Assembly (NCBI RefSeq): GCF_000148725.1
Contig: NZ_GL476318.1
Location: forward strand, 98,201 to 162,200
Direction of reading: 5' to 3'
DNA from: Roseibium sp. TrichSKD4
Lineage (GTDB): Bacteria; Pseudomonadota; Alphaproteobacteria; Rhizobiales; Stappiaceae
DNA: 64,000 bases
Below the pieces are notes generated by a model. The model was not told the DNA's origin. It saw nothing but the letters and a program-made list of their open reading frames with translations, and searched no databases. Positions 31,571-61,600 of the stretch are shown piece after piece. Position numbers and translations under genes: made by a program. Positions within the stretch are counted from its first letter, which is position 1. Each line of letters starts with the position of its first letter.

Positions 31571-31637
31571 TGGACAAATTGGTTTGATTTCGTAAGGGAG
31601 TGATTTTGGCTCATCATTGCTAACTCAGGAGCAAATG

Positions 31638-32012
31638 ATGAGACGAAAGAAGGACCGAGTGACCGACGATGCGGATCGGATCGTAAAAGACATCAAACGC
31701 CAGACCCGCCGTCGGTTTTCCGCTGAAGAGAAGATCCGCATAGTGGTTTCTGGTCTTCGAGGCGAAGACAGCATTGCAGAACTTTGCCGCCAGGAAGGTA
31801 TCGCCCAGAGCCAGTATTATTCCTGGTCCAAGGACTTCATGGAAGCGGGCAAGAAACGGCTTGCTGGGGACGCAGCTCGTGAAGCCAGTTCTGATGAAGT
31901 AAAGTCTCTTCGCAAAGAGACGAGGGACTTGAAGGAAGTGGTTGCAGAACAGGCTCTGGAACTTCGCCTTCTCAAAAAAAGCATGATCGGGGATGGGGTC
32001 GACGACGAATGA
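31638..32012 (+). CDS. IS3-family transposase OrfA
   Basis: A 124-residue DNA-binding protein: helix-turn-helix RFSAEEKIRIVVSGLRGEDS, then CRQEGIAQSQYYSWSKDF, and a C-terminal leucine-zipper-like coil (LRKETRDLKEVVAEQALEL). ATG 31638 lies six bases after AGGAG. Near its end, seven A then G at 31974-31981 match the A-AAA-AAG slippery type; a -1 shift there enters the orfB frame, which is open at that point. The stop also overlaps the orfB start by ATGA, so OrfB could be made by either route. Confidence 0.93.
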   Translation: MRRKKDRVTDDADRIVKDIKRQTRRRFSAEEKIRIVVSGLRGEDSIAELCRQEGIAQSQYYSWSKDFMEAGKKRLAGDAAREASSDEVKSLRKETRDLKEVVAEQALELRLLKKSMIGDGVDDE

Positions 32013-32989
32013 GATATCCCGCCTCCGAGAAACTTGAAATCATTCGACTGGTGGAGCAGTCCCATCTTCCAGTCAGACAGACGCTGGATCGGCTGGGTAT
32101 TCCAAGGTCAACCTTCTACGTCTGGTATGACAAATATCAAACCGGTGGCATAGATGCCTTGCAGGACACGGCCCCCATGCCTGCACGGGTCTGGAACCGG
32201 ATCCCCGATGATATCCGCCAACAGGTCATTGATCTGGCCCTGGAAGAACCGGAACTCTCACCTCGGGAGCTGGCTGTCCAGTTTACGGACACAAAGCAGT
32301 ACTTCGTGTCTGAGGCCAGTGTTTACCGGTTGCTGAAAGCCCATGACCTCATCACCAGTCCGGCCTTTATCGTGGTCAAGGCAGCTGACGAGTTCAAGAA
32401 CAAGACCACAGCGCCCAATGAGCTGTGGCAGACAGACTTCACCTATCTGAAGGTTATTGGCTGGGGTTGGTTTTACCTGTCAACAATCCTTGATGATTAC
32501 AGCCGCTATGTCATCGCGTGGAAGCTGTGTACGACGATGTTGGCCAGTGATGTCACGGATACGTTGGAACTGGCCTTACAGGCTTCAGGCTGTAATCAGG
32601 CCAGTGTCCGCCACCGGCCAAGACTGTTGTCGGACAATGGGTCAAGTTACTTCGCCGGTGAGCTGGCCGACTGGCTCGACGACAAAGGCATGGACCATGT
32701 GCGTGGAGCCCCATACCACCCCCAAACGCAGGGCAAGATCGAAAGATGGCATCAGACCTTGAAAAACCGGATCCTTCTGGAGAACTACTTCCTGCCCGGT
32801 GACCTCAAAGCCCAAATAAGCAAGTTCATCAGCCACTACAATCATCACCGATATCACGAGAGCTTGAAGAACCTCACACCCGCTGACGTCTACTTCGGGC
32901 GCGGCGAACAAATCCTGCGCAAACGAGAAAGGACCAAACAAAGCACCATCGAACAACGCCGCTTGCAACACCGCAAACAGGCCGCCTAA
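32009..32989 (+). CDS. IS3-family transposase OrfB (DDE integrase)
   Basis: A 326-residue rve-type integrase. N-terminal helix-turn-helix (QTLDRLGIPRSTFYVWYDKY) is followed by the DDE core: Asp in NELWQTDFTYLKVIGWGW, Asp in RLLSDNGSSYFAGE, Glu in PQTQGKIERWHQTLKNRI, with the usual HYNHHRYHESLKNLTPADVY at the end. All three catalytic residues are present, so the element may still be active. Confidence 0.95.
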   Translation: MRYPASEKLEIIRLVEQSHLPVRQTLDRLGIPRSTFYVWYDKYQTGGIDALQDTAPMPARVWNRIPDDIRQQVIDLALEEPELSPRELAVQFTDTKQYFVSEASVYRLLKAHDLITSPAFIVVKAADEFKNKTTAPNELWQTDFTYLKVIGWGWFYLSTILDDYSRYVIAWKLCTTMLASDVTDTLELALQASGCNQASVRHRPRLLSDNGSSYFAGELADWLDDKGMDHVRGAPYHPQTQGKIERWHQTLKNRILLENYFLPGDLKAQISKFISHYNHHRYHESLKNLTPADVYFGRGEQILRKRERTKQSTIEQRRLQHRKQAA

Positions 32990-42267: not shown

Positions 42268-42617
42268 TGTCTCCTCCAATAGTGTTCTGCATTTGTTCAG
42301 ACGCAATCTGGAGTACTTGCTTGAACCCGATGCCTGTTCCGCGCGCCAGACTTCTAAACACTCAATTGCGTTGGCAACTATCTGCGGAACAATACTAAGA
42401 GAATTTCAACAATGTCTCTGGCGCTGCCGATTTGCGACATTGTTCCCCACCACGAGATGCAAGAGAATGCTCAACACATCCTCCCCACCTTGATCAAGCG
42501 TAGTTTAAGTCTCCACTTCGCGCTGCACTCAAAAAAGTGCAGCGCTTTTTTGTACAACAAAAATGCAATCAGTGCGATTCCAGCGCGGTCCAGAACGCCA
42601 ACCCGGAGTTCTATTGA
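42268..42617. other. Gene-free spacer before the first IS5-type element, contains a terminator
   Basis: Apart from the strong terminator at 42520-42551 I see nothing I can support. A rightward frame from 42412 has no ribosome site and runs through the terminator hairpin, so I do not accept it. The 6-bp IS target duplication TATTGA occupies 42612-42617. Confidence 0.5.
42520..42551 (+). terminator. Strong rho-independent terminator on the plus strand
   Basis: GCGCTGCACT pairs with AGTGCAGCGC across a six-base A-rich loop and is followed by six T. No accepted rightward gene ends just upstream: the ABC operon stops 590 bases earlier. It either ends a long 3' untranslated region or a small RNA encoded in 41930-42550. 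Confidence 0.85.
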
Positions 42618-44094
42618 GTCCGCCCTGAACAACGTCTAAGCCATTGATGTTGCGCGTGGCCGAAGCAATACGCAAATATTCGATTTGACCGGTTTGGGGA
42701 TGGGGTTTGTGATCCAGAGCAGCAAAATGATCAGTGCATTGAGGATCAGACGCAGGTTATGACCGGCTGCGGCCAGCAGGGCGTTGATGGCATCGCCATT
42801 TTTGCCATTGAGGAAGTTCCGGTCAAGTCGTCCATCTGTTTTCATGTGGCCGATGGTGGCCTCGATCGCTGATCGTCGTTTCAGCTCACGCTTCATCTGT
42901 GCCGTCAGCCCGCGCTTCTGGCCGGAGATCATGACCTTGGCGTCGCCCTCATAATCATGCCCCCGATAGCCACGGTCCACATAGACACGCTCAGCTTTGG
43001 TGCCGCAGACTTTCTCAGCCTGACTGATGGTGTCATTCAAGGTGTGCCCATCATAGGGATTGCCCTCAAAAGCCCTCGCCGCAAGAACCAATCCTTCCCG
43101 ATTGGTCGTGGCAATGCCAACCTTGGCCCCGAACTCGTAAGGTGTTCGCGCCTTGCCCTTGGCAATACAGGCCACTTCCGGCGCATGCATGGAATAAATC
43201 TTGTTTTTGTCCTTGGGGGTCTGGGCCAGAAGCCGCTCCACCAGTCCCAGCAGACGGAGACCCGTGCTCAAGACCTTCGTTGCCTGCGATCTTGCGGGAG
43301 ATGTCGCGATAGACCCGGCCCAGATAGTCTTCAGCTTTTGAGTTCCCGGCGCATCCGCTTGAACTGTTTGGCATGGGCATAACGGCCCGCCATCAAGGCC
43401 GCCTTTTTGGCAACTCTGGTATGGCTGCGACGCAAGATGATGCCGGCCCTCTTGGCCTGGCGCACCAGAAGCTGCAAGGCCTTGTGATAAAGACGGCTAT
43501 CGGTGGGATGGGCAATGGCTTTGGGTTGAACGGTCGTATCAACCAAGACCCGCTCAAGGCTGCTCTTCTTGATCGTCCCGCTCTCAATCGCAACACCTAC
43601 CGTAGCAGAAAGAAGCTTTTCCATTCCCTCAGGACCAATCCGTTTGCGCCAGCGGGTCATGGTTGAGGGATCAATGGGGAATTGGTGCTGGAAAAACTCA
43701 AAACCGCAGAAAGACTGCCAGTAGGGGTTTTCAACCCAACGCTCAACCGTCTCTTCATCGGAAAGATCGTACATGTGCTTGAGAAAGTGCAGCCCGGCCA
43801 TCAGACGCGTTGGTTTGGCCGGTCGTCCCAAGGGGCGATAATGCCTGCCGAACTCCGCATCAAATTCATCCCAAGGCATCAGACCAGACAGCCGCACCAA
43901 CGAATGGTTCATATCGATGATTGCGGCCAGGCGTTCCTTGAACAGATCGCCACACCGTTTGTTGCGTTTTGAAGGTCTCATGAGAATATGCCAGAAAATG
44001 CGTGCTTCGGATCAACTAACCGGCATATTCACACATCCAAAACCCAATGGGTATCCATACTCTTCAATCAGTTAAGGGGTTTTTCAGCGCGAAC
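42618..44094 (-). mobile_element. IS5-family element, copy 1 (1477 bp, broken transposase)
   Basis: Ends begin GTCCGCCCTGAAC (left) and, complemented, GTTCGCGCTGAAA (right): an imperfect inverted repeat. Direct repeats TATTGA flank it (42612-42617 and 44095-44100). It is almost identical to copy 2 but four bases shorter; all four missing bases fall within 43255-43340, inside the transposase gene. Only 92 bases separate the two elements. Confidence 0.93.
42636..43981 (-). pseudogene. IS5-family transposase, frameshifted copy
   Basis: Same gene as 44205-45554 but disrupted. Compared with that copy, single bases are missing from AGATAGGTC, from a run of T in CAGCTTTTTGAG, and at two places around AGACGGGAGAACCGG. 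The frame splits into an N-terminal part (43331-43981, 216 codons, with the first catalytic Asp in VLVDTTVQ) and a C-terminal part (42636-43271, with YVDRGYRGHD and the Glu in RRSAIEATIGH). Not functional as given. Confidence 0.9.
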
Positions 44095-44186
44095 TATTGA
44101 CCCTCCAAATCTCAAAAGCAGCCCGACTGCGGGTCAGAACAAGGTCTCACGAAATCAGGCCCGTGCTCGCTCAAGAACCACAAATA

Positions 44187-45667
44187 GTCCGCCCTGAACA
44201 ACGTCTAAGCCATTGATGTTGCGCGTGGCCGAAGCAATACGCAAATATTCGATTTGACCGGTTTGGGGATGGGGTTTGTGATCCAGAGCAGCAAAATGAT
44301 CAGTGCATTGAGGATCAGACGCAGGTTATGACCGGCTGCGGCCAGCAGGGCGTTGATGGCATCGCCATTTTTGCCATTGAGGAAGTTCCGGTCAAGTCGT
44401 CCATCTGTTTTCATGTGGCCGATGGTGGCCTCGATCGCTGATCGTCGTTTCAGCTCACGCTTCATCTGTGCCGTCAGCCCGCGCTTCTGGCCGGAGATCA
44501 TGACCTTGGCGTCGCCCTCATAATCATGCCCCCGATAGCCACGGTCCACATAGACACGCTCAGCTTTGGTGCCGCAGACTTTCTCAGCCTGACTGATGGT
44601 GTCATTCAAGGTGTGCCCATCATAGGGATTGCCCTCAAAAGCCCTCGCCGCAAGAACCAATCCTTCCCGATTGGTCGTGGCAATGCCAACCTTGGCCCCG
44701 AACTCGTAAGGTGTTCGCGCCTTGCCCTTGGCAATACAGGCCACTTCCGGCGCATGCATGGAATAAATCTTGTTTTTGTCCTTGGGGGTCTGGGCCAGAA
44801 GCCGCTCCACCAGTCCCAGCAGACGGGAGAACCGGTGCTCAAGACCTTCGTTGCCTGCGATCTTGCGGGAGATGTCGCGATAGACCCGGCCCAGATAGGT
44901 CTTCAGCTTTTTGAGTTCCCGGCGCATCCGCTTGAACTGTTTGGCATGGGCATAACGGCCCGCCATCAAGGCCGCCTTTTTGGCAACTCTGGTATGGCTG
45001 CGACGCAAGATGATGCCGGCCCTCTTGGCCTGGCGCACCAGAAGCTGCAAGGCCTTGTGATAAAGACGGCTATCGGTGGGATGGGCAATGGCTTTGGGTT
45101 GAACGGTCGTATCAACCAAGACCCGCTCAAGGCTGCTCTTCTTGATCGTCCCGCTCTCAATCGCAACACCTACCGTAGCAGAAAGAAGCTTTTCCATTCC
45201 CTCAGGACCAATCCGTTTGCGCCAGCGGGTCATGGTTGAGGGATCAATGGGGAATTGGTGCTGGAAAAACTCAAAACCGCAGAAAGACTGCCAGTAGGGG
45301 TTTTCAACCCAACGCTCAACCGTCTCTTCATCGGAAAGATCGTACATGTGCTTGAGAAAGTGCAGCCCGGCCATCAGACGCGTTGGTTTGGCCGGTCGTC
45401 CCAAGGGGCGATAATGCCTGCCGAACTCCGCATCAAATTCATCCCAAGGCATCAGACCAGACAGCCGCACCAACGAATGGTTCATATCGATGATTGCGGC
45501 CAGGCGTTCCTTGAACAGATCGCCACACCGTTTGTTGCGTTTTGAAGGTCTCATGAGAATATGCCAGAAAATGCGTGCTTCGGATCAACTAACCGGCATA
45601 TTCACACATCCAAAACCCAATGGGTATCCATACTCTTCAATCAGTTAAGGGGTTTTTCAGCGCGAAC
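44187..45667 (-). mobile_element. IS5-family element, copy 2 (1481 bp, intact)
   Basis: Same terminal repeats as copy 1. Flanked by the direct repeat CAAATA (44181-44186 and 45668-45673), different from that of copy 1, so the two copies inserted independently. Both in the same orientation. With 6-bp duplications in both cases, 6 bp appears to be the true target-duplication length for this element. Confidence 0.94.
44205..45554 (-). CDS. IS5-family transposase, intact
   Basis: A 449-residue DDE transposase. N-terminal DUF772-like region: NHSLVRLSGLMPWDEFDAEF, then LMAGLHFLKHMYDLSDEETV. DDE core: Asp in LERVLVDTTVQPKAIAHPTD, Asp in AERVYVDRGYRGHDYEGDAK, Glu in RRSAIEATIGHMKTDGRL. The C-terminus is basic. 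All three acidic residues are present, so the element may be mobile and could also act on copy 1. Confidence 0.95.
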   Translation of the reverse strand: MRPSKRNKRCGDLFKERLAAIIDMNHSLVRLSGLMPWDEFDAEFGRHYRPLGRPAKPTRLMAGLHFLKHMYDLSDEETVERWVENPYWQSFCGFEFFQHQFPIDPSTMTRWRKRIGPEGMEKLLSATVGVAIESGTIKKSSLERVLVDTTVQPKAIAHPTDSRLYHKALQLLVRQAKRAGIILRRSHTRVAKKAALMAGRYAHAKQFKRMRRELKKLKTYLGRVYRDISRKIAGNEGLEHRFSRLLGLVERLLAQTPKDKNKIYSMHAPEVACIAKGKARTPYEFGAKVGIATTNREGLVLAARAFEGNPYDGHTLNDTISQAEKVCGTKAERVYVDRGYRGHDYEGDAKVMISGQKRGLTAQMKRELKRRSAIEATIGHMKTDGRLDRNFLNGKNGDAINALLAAAGHNLRLILNALIILLLWITNPIPKPVKSNICVLLRPRATSMA

Positions 45668-46948: not shown

Positions 46949-48487
46949 ATGGTTGGTAATATCGCCGGAACGTCCCCTCAATCAGCTCAGCGCTCCGCTC
47001 CAGTAGTCCAGCAAGGTTCAACACAACCTGCAACGACGAGCGCCGAAAGCAACAACCTGAAGCGTAGCCGAATAGGCGATTTGATCCAGAACTTCCCGTT
47101 GAACTATGCAATCCGGGAGGACACCCGCAGGGCGGTAGACAGGCTTTTTCCGGATGGATTTCAACTGGGCGCCAAGGGTCCAACGGACACGGAAACTAAG
47201 AACGTTTTGGGAACTCTTTTTCCAACTCTGACAGGAACCGAGTATCCGCAATCCCAACGAGCAGACCGGAAAACGATCGAAACTTTTTACAATGGTTCAT
47301 CTATTTTCAGGCAATTGCTACAGCAGTACGAAACGCCAGCACCTGGTCTGGCAAGAACCCAACCTGTCACCACACGCTCCAGTGCACCGAGCGAAAACCG
47401 CGTGCCAACCATTCGGTTCACGTACACAGAGCAGCCTCGACCAGCACCAACTCCGCCGGTCTCTTATGAATCCAGTTCCAACTCTTACTCAGTCAGTCTC
47501 CCACCTGTTAAGGCAGAAAGGAGCCAACCCGTTGAACAAGAGGCACCAGCTCGAGAGCTGAGCCGCGAAGCTCGCGTGATCACCGGAGTGGTTGAAGCTG
47601 TCCTGAAACGGCTGTTTGGAGATGAACTTTCACCTGAGCTGATGACGCGTTTGGTAAAACATCTTGTCAATCTGATTTTTGCCGAGATGGCCGACCCGAA
47701 ACAACCCATGCCCTATAAAAGTGAGTTCCTGAGAAACGAGGATTCAGGAACGCGCGTGTCGCCTAGTGCACCCAAGATGGTGAAAGAAGAAGAAAAGATC
47801 GAAAGCGACGAAGAACTCGTTGACCCGATCGACCAAGAAGAAAAGCCAAAAGTGGAAGAAGAGGACGGCAGAACCGAAGTCGACGTCGACGTCGATGGCG
47901 AAGTTGATGGTGAAAGCGAAGTTGAAGGCGAAGGCGAAGGCGAAGGCGAAGGCGAAGGCGAAGGCGAAGGCGAAGGCGAAGGCGAAGGCGAAGGCGAAGG
48001 CGAAGGCGAAGGCGAAGGCGAAGGCGAAGGCGAAGGCGAAGGCGAAGGCGAAGGCGAAGGCGAAGGCGAAGGCGAAGGCGAAGGCGAAGGCGAAGGCGAA
48101 GGCGAAGGCGAAGGCGAAGGCGAAGGCGAAGGCGAAGGCGAAGGCGAAGGCGAAGGCGAAGGCGAAGGCGAAGGCGAAGGCGAAGGCGAAGGCGAAGGCG
48201 AAGGCGAAGGCGAAGGCGAAGGCGAAGGCGAAGGCGAAGGCGAAGGCGAAGGCGAAGGCGAAGGCGAAGGCGAAGGCGAAGGCGAAGATAAAAAAATGAC
48301 TTTTGATCAAATTTATAATCTCGGCCATACTGAGTTTTTAGCAATAAATGCGGACGAGCAAACGCATCTAACAGACGAAGAGCGAGGCAAAATAAAGGAA
48401 CGGCAGGCCGAACTTCGAAGCGAGGAAAGAGACCTGCAGAAAACAATACAAGACAGTATTGCGGACGCCGCTAGGAGGGTAAGATGA
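46949..48487 (+). CDS. Protein with perfect (Gly-Glu)x60 tract, candidate secreted protein
   Basis: 512 residues in three parts. Residues 1-270 are Ser/Thr/Gln/Pro-rich at first (QSAQRSAPVVQQGSTQPATT), with a short conserved-looking segment ARVITGVVEAVLKRLFGDEL and LMTRLVKHLVNLIFAEM. Then an acidic stretch, followed by 60 consecutive GE pairs, and a ~65-residue charged coiled tail (DEERGKIKERQAELRSEERD). No Sec signal, no transmembrane helix. The polar, Ser-rich, signal-less N-terminus is the kind seen in type III secreted substrates, but that is not diagnostic. Start chosen at ATG 46949; TTG 46937 is possible. No family recognised. Convergent with the methyltransferase at 48503. Confidence 0.7.
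   Translation: MVGNIAGTSPQSAQRSAPVVQQGSTQPATTSAESNNLKRSRIGDLIQNFPLNYAIREDTRRAVDRLFPDGFQLGAKGPTDTETKNVLGTLFPTLTGTEYPQSQRADRKTIETFYNGSSIFRQLLQQYETPAPGLARTQPVTTRSSAPSENRVPTIRFTYTEQPRPAPTPPVSYESSSNSYSVSLPPVKAERSQPVEQEAPARELSREARVITGVVEAVLKRLFGDELSPELMTRLVKHLVNLIFAEMADPKQPMPYKSEFLRNEDSGTRVSPSAPKMVKEEEKIESDEELVDPIDQEEKPKVEEEDGRTEVDVDVDGEVDGESEVEGEGEGEGEGEGEGEGEGEGEGEGEGEGEGEGEGEGEGEGEGEGEGEGEGEGEGEGEGEGEGEGEGEGEGEGEGEGEGEGEGEGEGEGEGEGEGEGEGEGEGEGEGEGEGEGEGEGEGEGEDKKMTFDQIYNLGHTEFLAINADEQTHLTDEERGKIKERQAELRSEERDLQKTIQDSIADAARRVR
47927..48286 (+). repeat. Perfect hexanucleotide microsatellite, (GGCGAA)x60
   Basis: Sixty uninterrupted identical copies of GGCGAA, 360 bases, inside the gene above, coding Gly-Glu repeats. 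All six frames are open across it, which produces spurious Lys-Ala, Phe-Ala and Leu-Arg frames. Length changes would keep the reading frame, so the protein spacer can vary. The lack of any silent substitution implies recent expansion. Confidence 0.97.
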
Positions 48488-48502: not shown

Positions 48503-49249
48503 TTAATCAGCCGCGCGCTCCGCGACAATGATTTGTTTCGGGTGCCGGTTGTTGAACGGAACGCGGTCGTAAGTTCCATATTTCTCGACAATCCGGAGGC
48601 CTGCCGTCTCAAAGGCCAAGTCGAGTGTCTCTGGCGAAATTACGCTTAAAGAATACTGGCTGGTCGTCAAAATTTGCTCGTTTCGTCTGTCTTTGACGGT
48701 GACTGCAACGATCAGTTTTCCCCTGGATGAATCGAGCAATAGAAACTGTGAAGTTGCAACTTCCTTGCCCGTTTGCTGATCGACGACGTTCTTTTCAATA
48801 TTAATCCCTCCTGCAGGCAGTATCCTCTCGTCCAAATTATAGACATCGACAATAACGCGACCTGATTTGCGAACATGGGCCGCAAAACGCTTCAACGCAG
48901 ATGGGATGTCCTTGGCATCGAGATGCAGAAGGGAATTGAAAGAGCAGACGACAAGGTCGAACCTGCGGCGCAAATCAAACGAACGCATATCAGCAATTTC
49001 TGTCGACAACTGAGGCATTTTCAGGAGCGCGCGTCGCAACATTTCAGCGGATGCGTCAATCCCAACCACCGAAGCCGCGTTCTGCGTGAGAACCTCAGTC
49101 AACGTGCCGGAGCCACATGCAACTTCGAGGACGGAGTCGGCACTAGAAACGATCTCTCTGTAGAAGTTAAATTCCTCAAATCGCTCATCGTACAAACTGT
49201 CATAGATACCAGACATCTCTTCATAAAATTTGATATTGATATCAACCAT
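48503..49249 (-). CDS. Class I SAM-dependent methyltransferase
   Basis: A 248-residue methyltransferase. Motif I is SVLEVACGSGTLTEVLTQNA, followed by VVGIDASAEMLRRALLKMPQ, then FDLVVCSFNSLLHLDAKDIP. The C-terminal part (beta-rich, ILTTSQYSLSVISPETLDLA) resembles family members that methylate small molecules or polyketide-like substrates. Start at ATG 49249, four bases after GAGGTG. The nearest homologues I recall are generic; substrate unknown. It is convergent with the Gly-Glu protein gene, only 15 bases apart, and may be part of the same accessory cluster. Confidence 0.88.
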   Translation of the reverse strand: MVDINIKFYEEMSGIYDSLYDERFEEFNFYREIVSSADSVLEVACGSGTLTEVLTQNAASVVGIDASAEMLRRALLKMPQLSTEIADMRSFDLRRRFDLVVCSFNSLLHLDAKDIPSALKRFAAHVRKSGRVIVDVYNLDERILPAGGINIEKNVVDQQTGKEVATSQFLLLDSSRGKLIVAVTVKDRRNEQILTTSQYSLSVISPETLDLAFETAGLRIVEKYGTYDRVPFNNRHPKQIIVAERAAD

Positions 49250-49617
49250 AAAACACCTCAAACAAAGACATTAAGTCTAATTTTCCTATTAAATATATCC
49301 GGTCTTACTTCGCCTATATTGAGTATTATTTGCGTTTCTATATTCATCTGCAGAATTGATGGGGTGCCGCGCGTAGATTTTAGGCTCAACAGCTGGAATT
49401 GCGGACCTCGGCCTCTGGCAACGAAACGCGATATCCTCACCGAACTAAATTCCTCAGGGGAAAGAGAGACGATATAGATATGTAGAACTTTGTTTTTTTG
49501 CGTTGCAATGATATTTGTTCAGCTGCTGTTGATTCTATTTCAACCACTAAAGCAAGCAATAAAAAAATGTCAAGTTGTCGAGTATTGTTGCTTGCCGTAA
49601 GTTATCTGGAGCGGTTC
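49250..49617. other. Divergent AT-rich spacer, no gene seen
   Basis: Between the leftward methyltransferase and the rightward lipoprotein. It is unusually AT-rich at 49260-49360. An open frame from 49498 runs into the lipoprotein gene, but the segment before 49618 lacks a ribosome site and precedes the signal peptide. Promoters for both genes are expected here. Confidence 0.5.
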
Positions 49618-50370
49618 ATGGCAAACGGTCTCCCTCTCTGTAAGATACTGGCTGCGTGTCTGGCATTGCTGGTTTCCGCGTGCTCGAATGGCGAGGGATT
49701 TCAACAACGATCCGGTCAACAGAAATTTGAAAACGTCGTCGATATTGCTCTCTACAAAAAGGCCATTCGCGACGATCCAAATAACATCAATTACCTTCTC
49801 ATACTCGCAAACAAGTATGTTGAGACCACGCAGTGGTCGGAGTCTGCAGCCAGTTTCCGTGAGGCTTTACGGCTTTCCCCCAACAACACCTACGCTCTTG
49901 TTGGTTACGCACACTCGCTATTGGCGTTGGGTCAATATCAGGACGCCTTGTCTCTTGCAGACCGCAGCATCACACATCAGAGAACCAGCAAAAATTACCT
50001 GATCAAGGGCATCGCCTCCGATGGAATGCAGGATTATCAGTCATCGGACACCATCTACAGGCAAATAATTCGGCAACACCCACGAAATCTAGCGGCAAGA
50101 AACAACCTCGCGCTGTCCATGGCGCTTCAAGGCAAATCTGAAGCCTATGAAATTATGAGGGAAGTTGCGTTCTCACCAGATGCGCAGTTGCGGCACAGAC
50201 ACAATCTATTGCTTGTCGGCGCTCTGCTGGGAAGGCGGGACTTGACCAAACGCGACGCCGCCGCATTTTCAATATCGAGCGCGACCGAACAGAAAATTTT
50301 TGAAATTGGTCAGAAAGCACGGAAAAACGGTGTGAAGGCTTTTGGAATTGCGAGCGCAAAAGATCCTTGA
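49618..50370 (+). CDS. TPR-containing outer-membrane-type lipoprotein
   Basis: A 250-residue lipoprotein. Start ATG 49618 has GGAG six bases upstream. Signal peptide MANGLPLCKILAACLALLVSAC with lipobox VSAC at residue 22. Residues ~55-190 hold four TPR-like helical pairs (KKAIRDDPNNINYLLILANK, SFREALRLSPNNTYALVGYA, then LADRSITHQ and IYRQIIRQHPRNLAARNNLA). Similar TPR lipoproteins serve as pilotins or TadD-like assembly factors. Its position 131 bases from a secretion-apparatus gene (SctS-like, opposite strand) makes a role in secretion plausible but unproven. Confidence 0.82.
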   Translation: MANGLPLCKILAACLALLVSACSNGEGFQQRSGQQKFENVVDIALYKKAIRDDPNNINYLLILANKYVETTQWSESAASFREALRLSPNNTYALVGYAHSLLALGQYQDALSLADRSITHQRTSKNYLIKGIASDGMQDYQSSDTIYRQIIRQHPRNLAARNNLALSMALQGKSEAYEIMREVAFSPDAQLRHRHNLLLVGALLGRRDLTKRDAAAFSISSATEQKIFEIGQKARKNGVKAFGIASAKDP

Positions 50371-50500: not shown

Positions 50501-50755
50501 TCAAACGCTTGCAACACCTTCAAGCATTGTCTCCATAAAGACAACAAACTTGACTGCTGAGACAGAGCCAAACAGTAGAATAAACGCGATCACAGCAACT
50601 ATTTTTGCGATTTGAGGTAACGTTTGCTCTTGAATTTGGGTCAATACCTGAAAAATAGAAATTACAAGACCAACGATCGTTGCCACAGCAAGAATTGGAA
50701 CTGACACTTCCACTATCAACGCGATCGTACTCTCTATCAAAAATGACATCGACAT
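50501..50755 (-). CDS. sctS: Type III secretion export apparatus protein SctS/FliQ family
   Basis: An 84-residue inner-membrane protein, exactly family size. It has two transmembrane helices, STIALIVEVSVPILAVATIV and IAKIVAVIAFILLFGSVSAV, joined by the hallmark loop SIFQVLTQIQEQTLPQIAK (the Q-x-x-TQ-x-QEQTL motif of YscS/SctS; flagellar FliQ usually has TQINEMTL). The QIQEQTL wording points to the non-flagellar branch. Start ATG 50755 follows GAGG by eight bases; the longer frame adds unlikely residues. In complete systems it assembles with SctR, SctT and SctU, none of which are in this window. Either the rest of a type III system lies elsewhere or this is a lone copy. Confidence 0.85.
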   Translation of the reverse strand: MSMSFLIESTIALIVEVSVPILAVATIVGLVISIFQVLTQIQEQTLPQIAKIVAVIAFILLFGSVSAVKFVVFMETMLEGVASV

Positions 50756-51186: not shown

Positions 51187-51741
51187 TCAGCATTTTTTGG
51201 GTTTCCGCTTCTCACACGGAGACGGCTTATCGTCATCCAGAGGCAAGGAGACGGACTCGTCATCGAACATTAGACGCTCAATGTTTTTAATGATGTTCGT
51301 ATCGCCGGTCTTTTTGTGGGCAACGATGTAACCCGAATTGGTTTTCCGGATTTCATACTCATCCTTCTCCCCGGAAAAGATCGCAATATCGTAATCATCA
51401 CCGCCGTCGACATAATTGCTTCCGCTGCCGGGCACCAGGATGTCCTTGTCCTCAAACCCTCTCATTATGTCGTCGCCGGCACGACCGAACTGAATGTCGC
51501 CGTACTTGGTCCCCTTGAGATCGTTATCTTTTTTATCGCCCAATTGCAGACGACCCGTTTGCGATCCTAGGCAAAAATCCTTCCAGCAATCAGACCCGGA
51601 TCTCTCCTTGCGTTCGCGTTGCGGCTGGCTGCTATGGTGAAGCAATTTGAGAAGCGCATCTCTGGCAAGACTGTTCACGCCTCCGCTTTGCACCGAAACC
51701 ACCAACTGCAAAGCAATGTTTTTCTGATCAATAGCTGTCAC
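51187..51741 (-). CDS. Small RTX-like calcium-binding protein
   Basis: A 184-residue protein. Residues ~75-140 hold degenerate haemolysin-type nonapeptide repeats: KGTKYGDIQFGRAGDDIMRG, then ILVPGSGSNYVDGGDDYDIA, expected to coil into a calcium-binding beta-roll. This is followed by IRKTNSGYIVAHKKTG and IKNIERLMFDD, the usual tail of such modules. The N-terminal ~55 residues are helical with no Sec signal. Start is GTG 51741, preceded by GAGAGGA. RTX proteins with C-terminal repeats are normally type I secreted; this one ends in a Lys/Cys tail (CEKRKPKKC) instead. Candidate secreted protein; could be a truncated relic. Confidence 0.75.
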   Translation of the reverse strand: MTAIDQKNIALQLVVSVQSGGVNSLARDALLKLLHHSSQPQRERKERSGSDCWKDFCLGSQTGRLQLGDKKDNDLKGTKYGDIQFGRAGDDIMRGFEDKDILVPGSGSNYVDGGDDYDIAIFSGEKDEYEIRKTNSGYIVAHKKTGDTNIIKNIERLMFDDESVSLPLDDDKPSPCEKRKPKKC

Positions 51742-52323
51742 GGTCCAATCCTCTCTTGCTTACGATGCATGCAGATCCGATTTCGAGTCCGCTGCATTTT
51801 TTTGTACAAGCAAATGCCACGTAGAGAGCCTCTACTAAGTGGCCAAAAGTAAAAATTGGTATTTATTACTTAGGTCGAAATTCACGCCGCTGCCGCAGCC
51901 GCAGACGTTGGAGCAATGAGAAAATTTCACCTAGACCACAAAAATGATTTATAGTATAATAGCAAAAATTATATCTTTTTTTCGAATCTACATCAATTTA
52001 TACTGTTCAATTTAACAATAAAACACAAATTTACCTAATATAATCTGAATTAGACATTATTTATACATACCGATAATACCAAAAATTTTACCAGATCACC
52101 AAATAGTTATTTCAATACAAAAATATATTTCCTGAATTTCCCATCTATACTCTTCGTCGTTGCTGGGTCGTTCGTGTTTTTTACTTAGTATCCATACCTG
52201 ACAAATCTGGTGTTCAATTCAATTTGGTAGGTATTTCGCACGCGTTCGTACAAATCAACACTGTTCATTCCCGAGCGATATGCAGAACCTCTGGGTCAGA
52301 TCACTCTATTGGAGGAATCTGAA
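51742..52323. other. AT-rich divergent control region
   Basis: No gene. 51940-52140 is strikingly AT-rich compared with all neighbours, with many A/T tracts typical of curved or silenced DNA. The promoters of the RTX-like gene and of the proline-rich protein gene must both lie here. A short palindromic motif could not be fixed with confidence. Confidence 0.5.
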
Positions 52324-53922
52324 ATGCTCAGGCCAGTTAGAACCAGAACACCTTCTCCCCCTCGGCCCCAACCGAGGCCCTCTCCCCCACCCCCAAGGGT
52401 TCAGACATCCAAACCGGGGTCCTTTCCGAGGCCCCAGACGCCTCCAAATCCTGCGGTGGCGCAGCAGAGGGCTGCTTCGCCGACCCAACAACAGGATCAA
52501 CAACCGCCGAGAAACCTTGGCGCGGTGCCGAAAAGGACATCACAACAGCAAGAAGTCGTTTTGGAAAAGCCGGCTTCGGTTGAGCCAGAGGTGAGGAACG
52601 ACGCGCAGCAGGCACCGGCGGAACAGGCCCCGTTCCTCAATGAAATCAACCATCTTTCCGATGCGGATCGTTCGAAGATCAATTCTGTCTTTCAGAAACT
52701 GAGTCCCGAAGAAAGGCAGGCCTTTTCAAGCTATCTCAAACTCGTTCGGGACGACGATCTTGGATGGTCACTTTCGGTCCTTCTCTCAATTTCCGGTTTC
52801 ACTGACGCCCCCAAAGCTCTGCTCGCCGGTCTAAAGGTACTTGTTGAAGTTGCTGCCGCCACGAGAGAGAACTCCCAGTCAGGCTCATCCTCAGGTTCTG
52901 TGCCGTCTTTGCAGGATGCGCCGGATGAAACCCGCTCAAGTGAACAGGTCGAGACCGACCAGCAAGTGGAGGTTGCCCAGCCGGGCGGGGCTGCCGCTGC
53001 GGCGGAAGGCCCAAGGCAATTCAGAGCAAAAGACCTGCTGATCTCAGCCCTGGCGCAAATGCTGGCAACAGGCGCAACCTTCGGGTTCATCAAGCCAATG
53101 GTCGAGGCCGTTGTTTCGCAAGTTATCCAATCTCTGGACCTGAACATGTCGGAAGAAGACCAAAAGGAAATTGCCGACTATGTTTCTGGCGTCTTCGGCG
53201 GAATAGCTGTCGGCTTCTTTCACCAAGCGGTTGGCTCTGAAATCAGCAAGAAAATCAAGGCCGCGCTAGGTGGACCGTCCAATGCCGCGCTCCGGCAAGG
53301 AGGCTCAGCTGAACTTGCAGAAATAGCCGCCGTCGATATTCCAGTCTTTGCTGCTTTTATCGCCGCATATGCCGGTGGATCGGCCGTGCGCGTTGAATTG
53401 CCACCGGACTATGCAAACAACCTCTGGGTCCAGAAGGCCTTCAATGGTGCCCAATCATGGGCGGGCGGATTGTTGCAGGGAGCCATGACTGAAGCTGTAC
53501 AAGCTGTTATGACGGAGTCATACGAAAGGCAGGACACGGTGCCCTCCAATGAATCTCTTGGCCGAAAAATTGTCGACGCTTTCAAGGACATCTGGAACGT
53601 AAGGTCCGACGTGCGCAAGGCCTTCAAACAGCAGGTTGGAAAAATCGTCGGTGGTGTGCTTGGTATGGTTGCAGCAACCGCCGTGTCCAAACAAATGTCC
53701 GGCACGGAAGGCGAGAACGGTGAGAACTACTATACGGCAGATCAGGTTGCGGCAGCCGGCATGGCAACGTTCCTGACGCTATGGTTTGGCTCGATACACC
53801 TCGCTTCAATGGGTGGAAATATGTTGCAAGCGCGACGACAAACCAACCCACCTGAACAAGATATCGAGATGAACGCTATGCAAGGTCAGGACAATCCAGC
53901 CTATGAAGCGGACGAAACCTGA
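52324..53922 (+). CDS. Proline-rich N-terminus protein with hydrophobic C-terminal domain, candidate effector or translocator
   Basis: 532 residues. ATG 52324 follows GGAGG by eight bases, an excellent site. Residues 1-105 are Pro/Gln/Arg-rich and disordered (RPVRTRTPSPPRPQPRPSPP), with no Sec signal. Residues ~108-145 show LSDADRSKINSVFQKLSPEE. A polar, Gln/Glu-rich linker follows. From ~225 there are several amphipathic or hydrophobic helices (ALAQMLATGATFGFIKPMVE, VFAAFIAAYAGGSAVRVEL, GVLGMVAATAVSKQM, MATFLTLWFGSIHLASMGGN). Disordered, signal-less N-terminus plus membrane-active C-terminal half is the layout of type III translocators and some effectors. No family recognised. The same layout and an SDxDR motif recur in the giant protein at 55644. 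Inference, not proof. Confidence 0.75.
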   Translation: MLRPVRTRTPSPPRPQPRPSPPPPRVQTSKPGSFPRPQTPPNPAVAQQRAASPTQQQDQQPPRNLGAVPKRTSQQQEVVLEKPASVEPEVRNDAQQAPAEQAPFLNEINHLSDADRSKINSVFQKLSPEERQAFSSYLKLVRDDDLGWSLSVLLSISGFTDAPKALLAGLKVLVEVAAATRENSQSGSSSGSVPSLQDAPDETRSSEQVETDQQVEVAQPGGAAAAAEGPRQFRAKDLLISALAQMLATGATFGFIKPMVEAVVSQVIQSLDLNMSEEDQKEIADYVSGVFGGIAVGFFHQAVGSEISKKIKAALGGPSNAALRQGGSAELAEIAAVDIPVFAAFIAAYAGGSAVRVELPPDYANNLWVQKAFNGAQSWAGGLLQGAMTEAVQAVMTESYERQDTVPSNESLGRKIVDAFKDIWNVRSDVRKAFKQQVGKIVGGVLGMVAATAVSKQMSGTEGENGENYYTADQVAAAGMATFLTLWFGSIHLASMGGNMLQARRQTNPPEQDIEMNAMQGQDNPAYEADET

Positions 53923-54439: not shown

Positions 54440-55210
54440 ATGTCACAGACAACTCTGGTTAAAAATCCCCCTTTGACAGAGGGGCCCAACGAAAGAGCCC
54501 AGCATCTGCGCAAGCAAGGTGCAACCATTGTTGCGCTCTGCGATGGGTCTGAACAAATTTCCAATCAATTCAAAGACCTCATGGACGCGGAAGCGCACAT
54601 TTTCTTGGTGTACAGCTGCCCGACATTTGAAGATTTGCTGAACAAGGTTCCCAGAGTCATGCCGGACGTGATCGTCGCAGCCTACGACGTCATGGTCGGG
54701 TCGGGTTTTCAGCTCCCGAAAGAAACCAAGCTGCAGTACCCGGATATCAAGGTTATCAGTTCCAGGACACCGACAGACGGAGCCGTTGCCAGAAACCTTT
54801 TCTCCATGAACGTTGACGCCGTGCTTGGTGACAACGCATCCTCCGGAGAATACAGCGTCGCCATCCGCGCCGTGGGATTTGGGGGATTTTATGTTTCGCG
54901 GGAAATTTCCGAAGCCATGGCATTGAGCAAGGAGTTTCCTTCACTGCGCACAGAAGTTCAACACCAGGAAGAATTGGTCATCGAAGACCAAAACGTATTC
55001 GACAACGAGTTTGGACTAAGTCAGCGCGAGCTAGAAGTTCTACATCTGGTTGCGAAAGGGCTGAGCTCGAAACAGATCGCCCCAATCGTCAATATTTCTG
55101 CAAGAACAGTTGAAGCCCATCGCGCAAATATCAAACGCAAGACGAAAGCAATGGGCCTTAGCGATCTTGTTGAAATTGCTCAAAAGTACAGATCGGCCAC
55201 ACAAATATAA
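54440..55210 (+). CDS. LuxR-type transcriptional regulator with degenerate receiver domain
   Basis: A 256-residue NarL/LuxR-like regulator. The C-terminal helix-turn-helix is complete: LSQRELEVLHLVAKGLSSKQ, IAPIVNISARTVEAHRANIK, then a final helix. The N-terminal ~150 residues follow the receiver fold (beta strands IVALCDG, DVIVAAYD, VISSRTP), but the acidic pocket, phospho-acceptor Asp and the conserved Lys are missing or displaced. So it is probably controlled by something other than phosphorylation. Positioned between the proline-rich protein and the giant protein gene, it is the only regulator in the cluster and may control it. Confidence 0.88.
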   Translation: MSQTTLVKNPPLTEGPNERAQHLRKQGATIVALCDGSEQISNQFKDLMDAEAHIFLVYSCPTFEDLLNKVPRVMPDVIVAAYDVMVGSGFQLPKETKLQYPDIKVISSRTPTDGAVARNLFSMNVDAVLGDNASSGEYSVAIRAVGFGGFYVSREISEAMALSKEFPSLRTEVQHQEELVIEDQNVFDNEFGLSQRELEVLHLVAKGLSSKQIAPIVNISARTVEAHRANIKRKTKAMGLSDLVEIAQKYRSATQI

Positions 55211-55643: not shown

Positions 55644-58600
55644 TTACGGCTGTTGATCATTCGCTCTCCTCCTTTGTTGAGGCGCCTGTTGCGCCACATT
55701 AATGGTGACGGTCCGCCGTTCTTCGCGCGCAGGCCCGTCAGGTGTGTCTCGTCTGGTGATCACGAGAACGATCGTTGCGCTTGGCAAGTCCGCATAGTTT
55801 TCGTTCTGTCGGTACATGAGCTGCCCAAACTCTACGTAGAAAGCGTCGCCTACTGCTCCTTCAACTTCGACGCTGTCGTTCGGTCCGAGCTCCGGTACGG
55901 CTCCCGGAACAACCTGGGTTCCGTTGTTAAAGGCATTGATGGTCCCTTCGAACTGGGTCTCTGTATCGCCAGCTTGGTTGTCATTGTCGGCTGGTTGATA
56001 GTCCCTGATCCTTTGTTGGAAGGCATCGAAGTCCTGCCTGAATTGCTCGTTGTCTTCAGCGTTGACATTGTCGTTCATTGGCTGAGCGAACCGATCCAAA
56101 AAGGCATTCATCTGATCGTTACCTTGAACCGCTGGATGGTCCCGGAATTTCCAGAAAAGTTTCAACCCCTTGGCGAGCGTTTGACCAGCCTGCTCCGTGT
56201 CAGGAAGATTACCCTGGGTGAGCCTCTGAGTGACGTAGTTGTTAAATTCTTTGTATCCACCACTGATTAACCCAGCCAACAGGACCTTCATCTGCAACGC
56301 CAATGTAGCCATCTCATTCCAGCTTCTCTGCGAGTTAAACCCAATGGAGACCACTTCCTTCAGATACTGTATCGCTGTACGCACGACGACTTTGAGATAT
56401 GCCTTGAACTTGAGTGATCCTTCAGCGCTCAAACCACGAGCCCATGCGGAGCTGGATCGTATTCCGTCGACAATCGCATTGACTAAGCCGCTGAGTGCTG
56501 CGAACCCTATTGTTTTAGGAGTTTCCGCCAGAACTTTTGCCGGGCTATCGCCTATCGCAATTGCCGCGAGCGAAACGATAACTGAGAGAGTTCCACCCTT
56601 AACCTGGTTGACAATAGACTTCTTGAAAGCTTCCCAACCTTGCGTGAGGTTGGACTTGGCATCAGCTTTCACACCTTCGATCGCCTTTTTCAGCTTATCC
56701 GCTCTGTTTTGAACCTCAGTTTTGCTGTCGGCCCACGAGAGAGCAACTCCTCGGATTGTACCTACGAAGAATTCGACCAAATAGTTGGCCAGAAGGCTGA
56801 CAGTGCGTTCGTCAACATAGGTATTGCCGGGAACGGCGAGCGATGAAATCACCGCTTGTTGCTGCTCTGGGGTCAAATCGTCCCACATCGCAAAGGTTGC
56901 CGCCAAATCGGTCATTGTCTCTTCATCCAACGAAGCAACTGTGGCAATTACCGTGCGGTCGTCATCACTCATATTCTCCCATTCCTCTGTCAAAGTTGAC
57001 GTTTCCGGAGTTATGGGTGGCGTGCTGCTTTGCAAGGTTTCGTCCAGCAGCTGTGTCGCGTCGGTTTCCATTTGATCCAAATCCAGCGTTTGCGGATCGG
57101 TTGGCTCCGTTGACGGCGTCTCCCTATTGATTCCAAGCGCCTGATCTATCAAGCGTTGTGGAATTTCATCGGTCCGATTTTTGTAGATTGCCTGCAGGAT
57201 GTAGAGAGAAGCAGTTTGTATGGCTGCTCCAGCGCCACCGACGACCAAACTTGCCAAGGCGGATCGTGCGAGATTGGCCGTGGTATGACTACCCCACAGA
57301 TTGTATCGAACCTCTGTTAGCCATCTAGGGTCGAGCCACCCGTATTCCGCCCACCTGTGCATGAACGCCATCGCGCGGTCGTTTGCCGTTACGTCTTCTT
57401 GCGCAGCTTCCTTCAGTTCTTTCACGAGCTTGTCGAATTCTTCAAGCTCCGCACCGCTCAACCCGCTTCTGATCTCTGCGACAATACTGTCGAATTCAGG
57501 ATCGGTCGCGATGTTGTGCATTAGCGTGTGTGCAGAGTCTTGCGCCAACTGGGTTCTCTGACCTACGAATTCAGACCTTCTGCTGCGGCGGGCAAAATAG
57601 TTACCGACAGAGCTCACTGCATTTCGAACAGCTTCCGGTAAAGAAGGTTGTTGATTGCCGGGGTTCTCGGAACGTTGAATGGTTCGCATCTCGCCCGTTT
57701 CAAGGTCAAAGCCTAAGACATCCATTTCGAAGGCTTCGTTGTGCTCACCGCCGTCCTCAGTGGGTGGCGTTGTGGTGGTCGTTGTTGTTGTTGTAGTCGT
57801 GGTGGTGGTTGGTGTCGTTGGACGGTCGCCATCGCCACCGTCGCCGGCACCTCCGCCAGAACCGCCTGCGGCTCCTCCAGGCGCCAGGCCGGGTTGACCG
57901 ACAGCCGACATCTCGCCGGTGTTCGCATCACGTTCATAAACCGCATGGTCTGTACGTTTTCCGTCAGAATCCGTTTGGTAGAAATGCTGCGCTGCCGAGT
58001 TCGGACCGAACCCTGGATAATACTTGTAGTATTTTCCTGATGCTGTTTTGAAGCCCAACAATTCGTTGTTTTCACCGCGCCATTCGGTCGTGCTCTCTTT
58101 CTGGAGTTCGCGCGCCTGCCGTTCGAATTCGGCGAACTCTTCTTCGGTCAGACCATACGGACCAACCAGCTGGTCCTTCAGTGCCTGAATCGCTTCCGGG
58201 TTGCCGCCTTGTTGCAAGTCATGGATTAGATTGACGATCACGGCCTCGTTCCGGAGACGCTGTGCAACAAGCAACTCATCCTGCATGGCGTCGAGTTTCT
58301 GCGGATCCTCGTTCAAGGCGTCGGTAAGTTCGCGCAGACTGAATGAATCGTTGAGTTCTGACGGATCCGGTATCGAGAACGCCCGACCACTTGGGAGCAG
58401 CATGAACGATCGTGCGTTGGTGGTTACGCCTGTCTCATCCCAGTCGCCTGTTGCGGCGTTGTATCGAACGGTAACTTCTGTCCCGTTAGGCAACGTTATC
58501 CGCTGATCCATGCTCGGATCCTTGACCAGTGCCGAGTTGGGGGATTGCGGGTCGGCGACTGCCACGGGTGCCGCATTTGAAAGCACAACGGTCACAGTTT

Positions 58601-61600
58601 GATCGGTCGTACGAACACGGTCACCTTCTCCACTGCTGGCACGAACGGTCACCGACAGGGAGTCGCTCAATTCGTCTACGGAGCCGGTGTATCTGAGCTG
58701 ACCCGTTTTGGGATCAATCTCAAATTTGTCACTGTCCCGCCCATGGACGGAATAGGTGACCGGGTTGTCTTCCTCAGATTCCGCGTCCGAAGCCTGGAAC
58801 GGTGCGCCGACGGTGACGCCTCCAATCGCGGTTTTGGAAATCTCCTGGGCAGAGATCGGGAGCTGGGTCAGCGTACCGGCGGCAAATCTTGGCGCCGTGT
58901 TCCCGAGCGTGACGGTAACGACATGGTCGGTGGTTTTAAGCCGCTCACCTTCGCCGCTGCTGGCTCTGACAGTTACGGAAAGCGACTCCTTCAGATCATC
59001 TTCGGTTCCGATGTAGACCAGCTGCCCGTCAGCCCCGATTTGGAACTTATTGGCGTCGCGGCCGGTGAGTGAATACGTCACCTCGTCATTTTCATCATCC
59101 GTTGCCTGGAACGGTGAGCCGACGTTAACGCCGCCTGAAGGCGAACCTGCAAACTGGGACTCAGTCAGCGCAACTTGTGTCGGCGTGCCCTCTGCGAACC
59201 TTGGTGCGGTGTTCGCAATGGAAACATTTACGACAAAGTCCGTGCTGGCAGCTCGTTCGCCTTCCCCGCTGCTGGCGGTGACGGTGACCGCTAGACCAGC
59301 TTCAAGCTGTTCTAGCGTGCCGATGTATTTCAACTGCCCGGTTGCAGGATCGATCTTGAACTTGTCGCTGTCCGGTCCGCTCACCGAATAGGTGACGGGG
59401 TTGTCTTCTGCGGCTTCTTTGTCCTTTGCGCGGAACGGTGCCCCGACATTGACGCCACCTTCCGGCGCTCGCAGGACGTCACGTGCCGATATTCCAACAT
59501 CGGTTGGCGTGTCGTCGGCGAATTGCGGTGCGGTGTTGCCCAGCGAAACCTTCACAACATGGTCAGTGCTTGTGGCCCTACTGCCTTCGCCGCTGCTTGC
59601 GGTCACGGCAACTGAAAGACCATCCTTGAGCTGTTCTTCCGTGCCGATGTACTTCAACTGCCCGTTGACGATGCTGAACTTGTTCGCATCTGGCCCCTTG
59701 AGCGTGAACGTAACTGTGCCGTCCACGTTTCCGTCTGCATCGGTTGCCTGGAAAGGTTGGCCGATATTGACGTTGCCCTTCCTGATATCGTCCACCGAGA
59801 CGGCGACGGATGAAGGCGGATTTCCGGAAAAGGCTGGAGCTGCGTTGGAGAAGCTCACGGTTACCGGGTGAGAGGCTGTTTGCGGCGCATCATAGCCATC
59901 ATGCTCCGCAACGATCGTTACATGCAGAGTTTTGCCGACATCGTCTTTTGAGCCGATGTAAACCAGCTTGCCGTCCTCGAACGTGAACTTGTCCTTATCC
60001 GGACCGGTCAAGTGGTAACTGACCGGTCCGCTCGCGTAGGATGGTTTGCTCGCCGAGAAACTGCCGTCGATGTCCGTGCTGCCATCGATATCGGCGGGGT
60101 TGATTGAGACGCTGGATGGCGCGCTGCCGAAGTCTGCCGGTGTATTGCCATAGGATTTTCTGACAGCCTCGCGAATTCCGAAGAACAGTCCGGTTCCACC
60201 GCCACCGACGACCACGACACCTCCACCGACGGCCGCCCAAGTTGGTACCTGCGTGCCAAAGATGGTGATCCCGCCAGCGCCACCGGCACCCGCTCCCAGA
60301 CCTTCCAGTCCGGCACCTGCTCCCTCAAACCCTTCAAGAACACTGCTGCTGCCCTGTTCGATCAACGGGATTTCCTCAGCAGCACTTGCGGTGTTGCTGG
60401 CCGAGCTGGCGCGGCTCAAGAGGTTGCTGAAAAAGTCTTTCACGGTGCTACCCGCGCGCATCAAGCCACGCGCAGCGCGAATACCCAGTTTCCCGGCGCC
60501 GCTCCGTGACAACTGTTCCGAATTCACGATGCTTTCGAGCAGCAGCGTTGTTTCTCCTGCAAATTCAACAGGAAGCTCCTGACCGAAGGCGTTCAAGGTA
60601 CCCCGGTCGTTTTCCGTTTTGAGCTGGTTCAACTGACCCTGACTGATCGGTCCACCATTGGCGACGCCGCGCGCAAAGATGGCGCCTTCGTCACCCGGGC
60701 TGTCGTCAGTGCCCAGCAAGGCGTCGAAGTGATGACCGAGTTCCTCCATCAGAACCTTGTTGATCTCATCCGGGTCCTTGAGCTTGCGGCTGATGAAGAT
60801 CTGGCCACCGCCTTCTTTCGTGTAGGCGCCCTGAGTGGTGCTTCCGGCTGCGAAATTCACCGTATGCAAGGCTGCCGGCACAGGCACGTCGCCAGACGCG
60901 ATCCGCTTGATCAGGTCATCAATCTGAGCTGGTTTTGCGTTCGGATAGGCCTGTTGCAGAATCTGCCGCAATTGCTGCGGATTTTCCTTGGCGAGTGTCG
61001 TCAGCGACGAAATCATGGTGTCCCATTGTTTTCGCGCGGTACTCGGCTCCGGTTTTTCTTCTGCGCCGAGTGCTTCAAACGCTTTGGAAGCTTTCGTCGA
61101 CAATTCGTCCTTGATGACTTTGCCATCCGCGCCAAAGAACAGGTTTTCAGTTCCGGTCAGGTTGCCGGTTATGGTCTTGCCTTCGTTTTCAGAAACATGG
61201 CTCCAGGCCGCCTCACGTTTTTTTCCTACATAAAGCGAAACTGTCTGTGTCTGTCCGTTGCGCGGGTTGCGAACGGTAATTTCGTAAACGCCTTCTGGGA
61301 CATCAGACCCTTTGGCTATGATCTGACCGGTGTTCTTGTCGACGGTCAGCTTGCTTTCGTCGCCCTTCGTAACTTCGAATTCCAGTGGTGTTCCGTCGTA
61401 GTTGAACGCGCTGACCTGCCCCAGGACCTGGCCATCGGAGGTGGTATCGCCGGCGCCCAACAGAACCGCCTGCGATCCAATTACGTCCGGCTTCCGGTCC
61501 TCTTGCGGCTTCATTTTGACAAGAACAGTAACGATCTGGAATTGGTCGCCCTGTTTGACGCGGACTTTAAGTTTGAACAGCCCAGGTATGATTGAACCGG

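What the first reader, a model, noticed from the sequence alone, without database searches (positions are those of the whole stretch)
50501..50755. Lone SctS-type type III secretion gene
An 84-residue protein with the QIQEQTL loop of the non-flagellar SctS branch sits among unknown genes, with no SctR, SctT, SctU or ATPase gene in the window. SctS genes almost always lie in sctRSTU order. A detached copy next to candidate secreted proteins suggests either a dispersed type III system or a reused export component.
Basis: partly seen in the sequence, partly recalled or inferred. Interest (0 to 1): 0.75.

Follow-up and report, generated by a model that had tools for sequence, protein, structure and literature searches.

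The report
Detached type III secretion export-gate gene
An alphaproteobacterium carries one small gene of a protein-injection machine beside a likely helper protein of such machines, but away from the genes it normally sits between, which suggests a machine whose genes have become scattered.

Summary
The 84-codon gene is real, at 50501-50755, minus strand. It belongs to the FliQ/SctS family (Pfam E 1.2e-18). Both trees leave it outside the flagellar clade (99/86 and 100/97). It lacks the proline before the conserved lysine found in 10 of 10 FliQ rows and 0 of 18 non-flagellar rows. The QIQEQTL loop is not diagnostic: some FliQ have it.

Of 111 distinct FliQ/SctS loci fetched, all 40 without a recognised FliQ proline-lysine have sctR just before and sctT just after; 70 of 71 with it lack at least one. 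A detached FliQ is ordinary here; a detached SctS is not.

It is not quite alone. The next gene, 130 bp away, encodes a TPR lipoprotein that groups (100/98) with four T3SS-linked lipoproteins; three of those four clusters also hold the three best SctS matches of the T3SS loci compared. A methyltransferase and a 537-aa protein nearby have relatives beside T3SS clusters.

Best reading: part of a scattered non-flagellar T3SS. The genome is not held and the window ends 13.2 kb past the gene, so partner genes were not shown to exist. A remnant or an extra copy remains possible.

The parts
50501..50755 (-). sctS, 84 aa, export-gate subunit of non-flagellar type
   Evidence: Pfam PF01313 E 1.2e-18; trees; residues; G+C 40%, third positions 39%, window 54%
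49498..50370 (+). TPR lipoprotein, pilotin-like; more likely start ATG at 49618, lipobox VSAC
   Evidence: best plasmid matches are three Paracoccus T3SS plasmids; tree 100/98 with T3SS-linked TPR lipoproteins; phmmer up to 117 bits
48503..49261 (-). class I SAM methyltransferase, 252 aa
   Evidence: Pfam; best plasmid match 40.6%, E 4e-53, on the T3SS-bearing Leisingera plasmid
52309..53922 (+). 537-aa protein, proline-rich start, hydrophobic later part; candidate T3SS substrate or translocator (inference)
   Evidence: relative in 1 of 87 genomes, ending 0.7 kb from sctU there
54440..55210 (+). LuxR-type regulator, possible regulator of the locus
   Evidence: Pfam GerE; relative in T3SS locus L228, weak evidence as LuxR proteins are common
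42617..45667 (.). two tandem copies of one insertion sequence, left border of the stretch of low G+C
   Evidence: blastn 99.7% over 1482 bases, 42617-44094 against 44186-45667

Best explanation
The gene encodes the SctS subunit of a non-flagellar type III secretion system whose genes are scattered in this genome. Four SctS copies would be added last around a pre-formed gate of five SctR and one SctT, so the subunit can be supplied from a separate gene. The adjacent TPR lipoprotein would help place or stabilise a Tad-type outer-membrane secretin, as proposed for Y4yS in Mesorhizobium. Shown here: family, branch, the kinship of the neighbour, largely shared relatives, and no partner gene found in the window. 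Inferred: that the partner genes exist elsewhere, that the gene is expressed, and the assembly and pilotin roles.
For: Non-flagellar placement in two trees and by residues. 10 of 11 columns conserved in at least 17 of 18 non-flagellar rows are kept, the lysine and the glutamate that pair between subunits among the kept residues. Intact frame with a GAGG motif before the start. The neighbouring TPR lipoprotein groups with T3SS-linked ones at 100/98. Of the T3SS loci compared, the three best SctS matches are G1094 (53.3 bits) and two Paracoccus plasmids (50.4, 50.2), which also hold the three best TPR matches. Methyltransferase and 537-aa protein have relatives beside T3SS clusters. Scattered non-flagellar systems are known: 21 of 216 in PMC3459982 (passages). 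SctS is added last to the gate (PMC6593402, passages).
Against: No other T3SS structural gene was found in the window and the genome is not held. NCBIfam and PDB sequence searches score FliQ above SctS. In the first tree the window row was sister to the flagellar clade at 88/80; in the second its place is weak, 65/74, on a long branch with 89 columns. Low G+C also fits a displaced fragment. The third Paracoccus plasmid's SctS scores 40.4 bits, below several others. Four other T3SS-linked TPR proteins score below two Tad-linked ones against the window protein.
Confidence: 0.55

Rival explanations
1. Remnant: a T3SS island once here was cut up, perhaps by insertion sequences, and sctS and the TPR gene are leftovers without partners.
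For: No partner found in the window; insertion sequences at 31617-32989 and 42617-45667; long branch and low G+C.
Against: Both genes are intact and sctS keeps 10 of 11 highly conserved columns; no sctR or sctT fragment was found in any frame.
Confidence: 0.2
2. Extra copy: the genome has a complete T3SS with its own sctS, and this gene is a second, divergent copy, perhaps from another T3SS acquired with its TPR lipoprotein.
For: The genomes of the family of G001 with complete clusters have their own sctS; eight such rows fall in three tree groups away from the window row, so this one was probably acquired separately.
Against: No second copy could be looked for.
Confidence: 0.15
3. Flagellar FliQ, detached from fliP and fliR as is usual in this sample.
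For: 70 of 71 loci with the FliQ motif lack fliP or fliR or both as a direct neighbour; NCBIfam and PDB scores favour FliQ slightly; sister to the flagellar clade in one tree.
Against: The flagellar clade excludes it at 99/86 and 100/97; the proline before the lysine is missing (10 of 10 in FliQ rows, 0 of 18 in others); the neighbours are T3SS-linked, not flagellar.
Confidence: 0.05
4. Re-use: the protein works in something other than a type III gate.
For: No partner found in the window.
Against: Gate residues are kept and the neighbour is T3SS-type.
Confidence: 0.05

Closest known systems
T3SS clusters of genome G1094 (family of Phaeobacter sp. CECT 5382) and of Paracoccus plasmids pKON1 and p3
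   Same: The three best SctS matches of the T3SS loci compared and the three best TPR lipoprotein matches are in these clusters
   Different: There sctS lies between sctR and sctT; the TPR gene lies 3.7 to 20 kb from sctS, here 130 bp
Y4yS of Mesorhizobium loti (PMC4311626, passages)
   Same: TPR lipoprotein of a T3SS; related to TadD; proposed to help a Tad-derived secretin
   Different: Y4yS is 165 aa and in the main cluster; no alignment to it was made here and no secretin was seen in the window
Scattered non-flagellar T3SSs of Chlamydiales, Hamiltonella and plasmid pYPTS01 (PMC3459982, passages)
   Same: Core genes spread over several loci
   Different: A single sctS split from sctR and sctT was not mentioned in the passages I saw; here the other loci are unseen
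T3SS clusters of the family of G001 (Labrenzia sp. 011), such as G004, G033 and G046
   Same: Same family as the likely host by the hutG-like gene; G004 has the only relative of the 537-aa protein among 87 genomes, beside its T3SS
   Different: Their SctS rows fall in other groups of the tree and lie between sctR and sctT

Membership tests
FliQ/SctS (PF01313) | Match to the family profile over its length | tested here: met
   67.3 bits against a cut-off of 25, residues 6-74 on profile positions 5-73 of 74
SctS, non-flagellar branch | Score over the NCBIfam SctS cut-off | tested here: not met
   52.3 bits, cut-off 76.5; FliQ model 62.1, cut-off 88.9, also not met. The filing rests on trees and residues
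SctS, non-flagellar branch | Outside the flagellar clade in a tree | tested here: met
   Flagellar clade without it 99/86 and 100/97; exact place unresolved
SctS, non-flagellar branch | No proline before the conserved lysine | tested here: met
   Proline in 10 of 10 flagellar and 0 of 18 non-flagellar rows; window has alanine
SctS, non-flagellar branch | Position between sctR and sctT | tested here: not met
   No sctR or sctT found in the window; 40 of 40 other loci without the FliQ motif have both
Scattered non-flagellar T3SS | Remaining core genes elsewhere in the same genome | not testable with these tools
   No whole genome is held for the window
T3SS TPR pilotin-like lipoprotein (Y4yS type) | TPR repeats behind a lipobox | tested here: met
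   TPR families; VSAC read from the sequence
T3SS TPR pilotin-like lipoprotein (Y4yS type) | Groups with T3SS-linked rather than Tad-linked TPR proteins | tested here: met
   100/98 with four T3SS-linked rows; Y4yS itself was not in the tree
T3SS TPR pilotin-like lipoprotein (Y4yS type) | Needed for level or placement of the secretin | not testable with these tools
   Needs a mutant

The most novel reading that the evidence does not exclude
A working type III system whose export gate is completed in trans: sctS has left the sctRST unit and lies with the secretin helper among effector-like genes, so that completion of the gate and placement of the secretin are controlled together as a switch, or one pool of SctS serves more than one gate.
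Probability: 0.15. Interest if true: 0.7.

Novelty: new variant of a known kind. Interest (0 to 1): 0.42.

Why it matters
The gate genes R, S and T were in order in all 40 other loci without the FliQ motif that were examined. PMC6593402 raises the question how operon order relates to the order of assembly (passage). A natural case with S split off, if the system works, would let one test directly whether co-location is needed to build the gate. If it does not work, it is an ordinary displaced fragment.

Tried and rejected
Rejected: chance; flagellar FliQ (trees, proline, neighbours), though profile scores lean to it; a broken operon on the spot (no R or T piece in six frames). The QIQEQTL loop as proof of branch.

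Led nowhere: a scan of genome contigs with the SctS protein confirmed no relative among 209 pattern matches; the island DNA in plasmids, no match; the 537-aa protein in plasmids, no match, and a piece of it in 275 genomes of the family of G753, 0; the methyltransferase in 275 genomes of that family, 0 at E 1e-25; [quoted passage not shown] repeats and promoter scan gave nothing that stood out; no tRNA gene. Literature: SctS, FliQ, type III secretion and orphan together, 0 papers; pKON1 with Paracoccus and type III secretion, 0. These searches do not show that nothing is in print.

Full report
The observation. The window holds an 84-aa ORF at 50501-50755, minus strand. Pfam gives one family, Bac_export_3, at E 1.2e-18. 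The ATG is preceded by GAGG; the mechanical ORF begins further up at a GTG. NCBIfam scores FliQ (62.1 bits) above SctS (52.3), both under their cut-offs, and the two best PDB sequence matches are FliQ (43.9 and 36.3 bits) before SpaQ (34.0). On such scores alone the branch is open.

Which branch. In an 85-row tree the window protein lies outside a clade of 58 rows that holds all three rows labelled flagellar (99/86), as its sister at 88/80, on one of the longest branches. With closer relatives added (56 rows), the flagellar clade of 25 rows excludes it at 100/97 and it falls on the non-flagellar side among G1094, Paracoccus and Rhizobium rows, with weak support, 65/74. Only 89 columns are available and the exact place is unresolved; the AU test did not reject the 26 non-flagellar rows forming a clade without it (p 0.293). 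In an alignment of 18 non-flagellar and 10 flagellar rows, proline before the conserved lysine is in 10 of 10 flagellar and 0 of 18 other rows; the window has alanine. Proline at window position 64 is in 10 of 10 flagellar rows but also in 4 of 18 others; the window has serine. Glutamine at position 44 is in 18 of 18 non-flagellar rows and in the window, but also in 3 of 10 FliQ.

Is being alone unusual? I took the FliQ/SctS loci fetched, removed duplicates in a script, and asked for sctR/fliP just before and sctT/fliR just after on the same strand, within 400 bases. Of 111 loci, 71 had the FliQ proline-lysine: 30 had neither neighbour, 40 only the downstream one, 1 both. Of the other 40 (39 clear, 1 in which the motif could not be read), 40 had both. 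The loci came from searches with this protein and from chosen plasmid records, so they are not a random sample, and contig ends may hide a neighbour in some of the 71. Still, a detached FliQ is ordinary in this sample and a detached SctS is not.

What is missing. Profiles built here from 2 to 11 proteins each found no SctR, T, U, V, J, Q, L or K in 1254 six-frame segments; SctN gave one weak match, 11.6 bits at 3-1574. The SctV profile came from one SctV and three FlhA, though it did find SctV in other loci; no profile was made for the secretin, SctD or the needle. No whole genome is held. The window ends 13.2 kb right of sctS, within a giant cadherin-repeat frame still open at the edge, so a cluster just outside cannot be excluded.

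The neighbour. The TPR gene (49498-50370, plus strand) ends 130 bp from the end of sctS. Of 72,556 plasmids 70 match it; the first three listed are Paracoccus kondratievae pKON1, Paracoccus sp. TOH p3 and Paracoccus sanguinis pPspOM122, all with a T3SS cluster. pKON1 and p3 are also third and fourth in the listing for SctS, with 59 bits, the highest there, shared with Ciceribacter. Most of the other TPR matches are on Pseudosulfitobacter (40) and Azospirillum (13) plasmids; one of each was looked at and lies in a Tad pilus cluster, so TPR similarity by itself says little. In a 17-row tree the window protein groups with the T3SS-linked ones of G1094 and the three Paracoccus plasmids at 100/98, apart from two Tad-linked ones and six from the family of G001. 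By phmmer those four score 94.8-117.1 bits against 63.2 or less for the rest; four other T3SS-linked TPR proteins score 24-52, below two Tad-linked ones. The three best SctS matches among the T3SS loci compared are G1094 (53.3) and two of these Paracoccus plasmids (50.4, 50.2), the third plasmid scoring 40.4. Two components pointing to the same clusters is the strongest evidence that this is T3SS material of one origin. In Mesorhizobium loti the TPR lipoprotein Y4yS affects the level of the Tad-derived secretin RhcC2 (PMC4311626, passages); a Tad origin of rhizobial T3SS secretins is reported in PMC3459982 (passages). A pilotin-like role here is inference.

Other neighbours. The methyltransferase at 48503-49261 has its best plasmid match (40.6%, E 4e-53; the next E is 7e-15) on the Leisingera sp. 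S132 plasmid with a T3SS, 11 kb from sctJ there; 0 of 275 genomes of the family of G753 matched at 1e-25. The 537-aa protein has a relative in 1 of 87 genomes of the family of G001 (27-29% identity); there it ends 0.7 kb from sctU. The LuxR gene has a relative in T3SS locus L228; its 8 plasmid matches were not examined for a T3SS. The TPR-methyltransferase at 45700-46767 matches 27 plasmid records, mostly Azospirillum and rhizobia; their surroundings were not examined. For the 516-aa, the RTX-like and the giant protein no T3SS link was found in the loci compared.

Host. The hutG-like gene at 17124-17924 is closest to Labrenzia, Stappia and Roseibium records, 71-76% for the best eight, so the host is probably in or near Stappiaceae (family name recalled). 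In the tree, eight non-flagellar rows from that family fall in three groups, none next to the window row, so this SctS was probably acquired separately; its G+C (40%) against 54% for the window agrees.

Mechanism. SctS subunits are added last, one after another, to a formed SctR5-SctT1 gate (PMC6593402, passages), which makes supply of S from a distant gene plausible. E43 and K51 of the window protein fall on FliQ positions 46 and 54, reported as a salt bridge between neighbouring subunits, and a K54A EscS does not restore secretion (PMC6863770, passages). Of 11 columns conserved in at least 17 of 18 non-flagellar rows, 10 are kept. This fits a working subunit better than a decayed one, but a recent displacement would look the same.

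Verdict. SctS of the non-flagellar branch: about 0.93. Part of a scattered, working T3SS: 0.55.

Noticed in passing
47875-48287: About 69 copies of a 6-base repeat, CGAAGG, inside the 516-aa ORF, read as (Glu-Gly)n; the other frames are open too and read as Ala-Lys or, on the minus strand, as Phe-Ala and Leu-Arg repeats.
   Followed up: partly
55644-64000: A frame of over 2750 codons with five cadherin-domain matches, still open at the right edge of the window.
   Followed up: partly
42617-45667: Two tandem copies of one insertion sequence, 99.7% alike; the ORF of the left copy is split in two.
   Followed up: partly
31617-32989: An element 73% identical in protein to the IS3-like ISPko4 of Paracoccus plasmid pKON1, the plasmid that also has the related T3SS.
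   Followed up: no
51187-51741: A 184-aa ORF with a weak RTX calcium-binding match, below Pfam's cut-off, perhaps a fragment of a longer protein.
   Followed up: no
L128:6148-13942: Two large proteins (1053 and 1064 aa), 42% identical to each other, lie near the T3SS of G004 beside the relative of the 537-aa protein.
   Followed up: no
L172:20933-21976: In Rhizobium johnstonii pRlX5 sctU is 7.6 kb away from sctT and lies beside the TPR gene, so other gate genes also move.
   Followed up: no
L084:1486-1752: Genome G001 has two FliQ genes, one between flgD-like and flhA-like genes and one in a second flagellar-type cluster, L082 (gene names there by eye).
   Followed up: no
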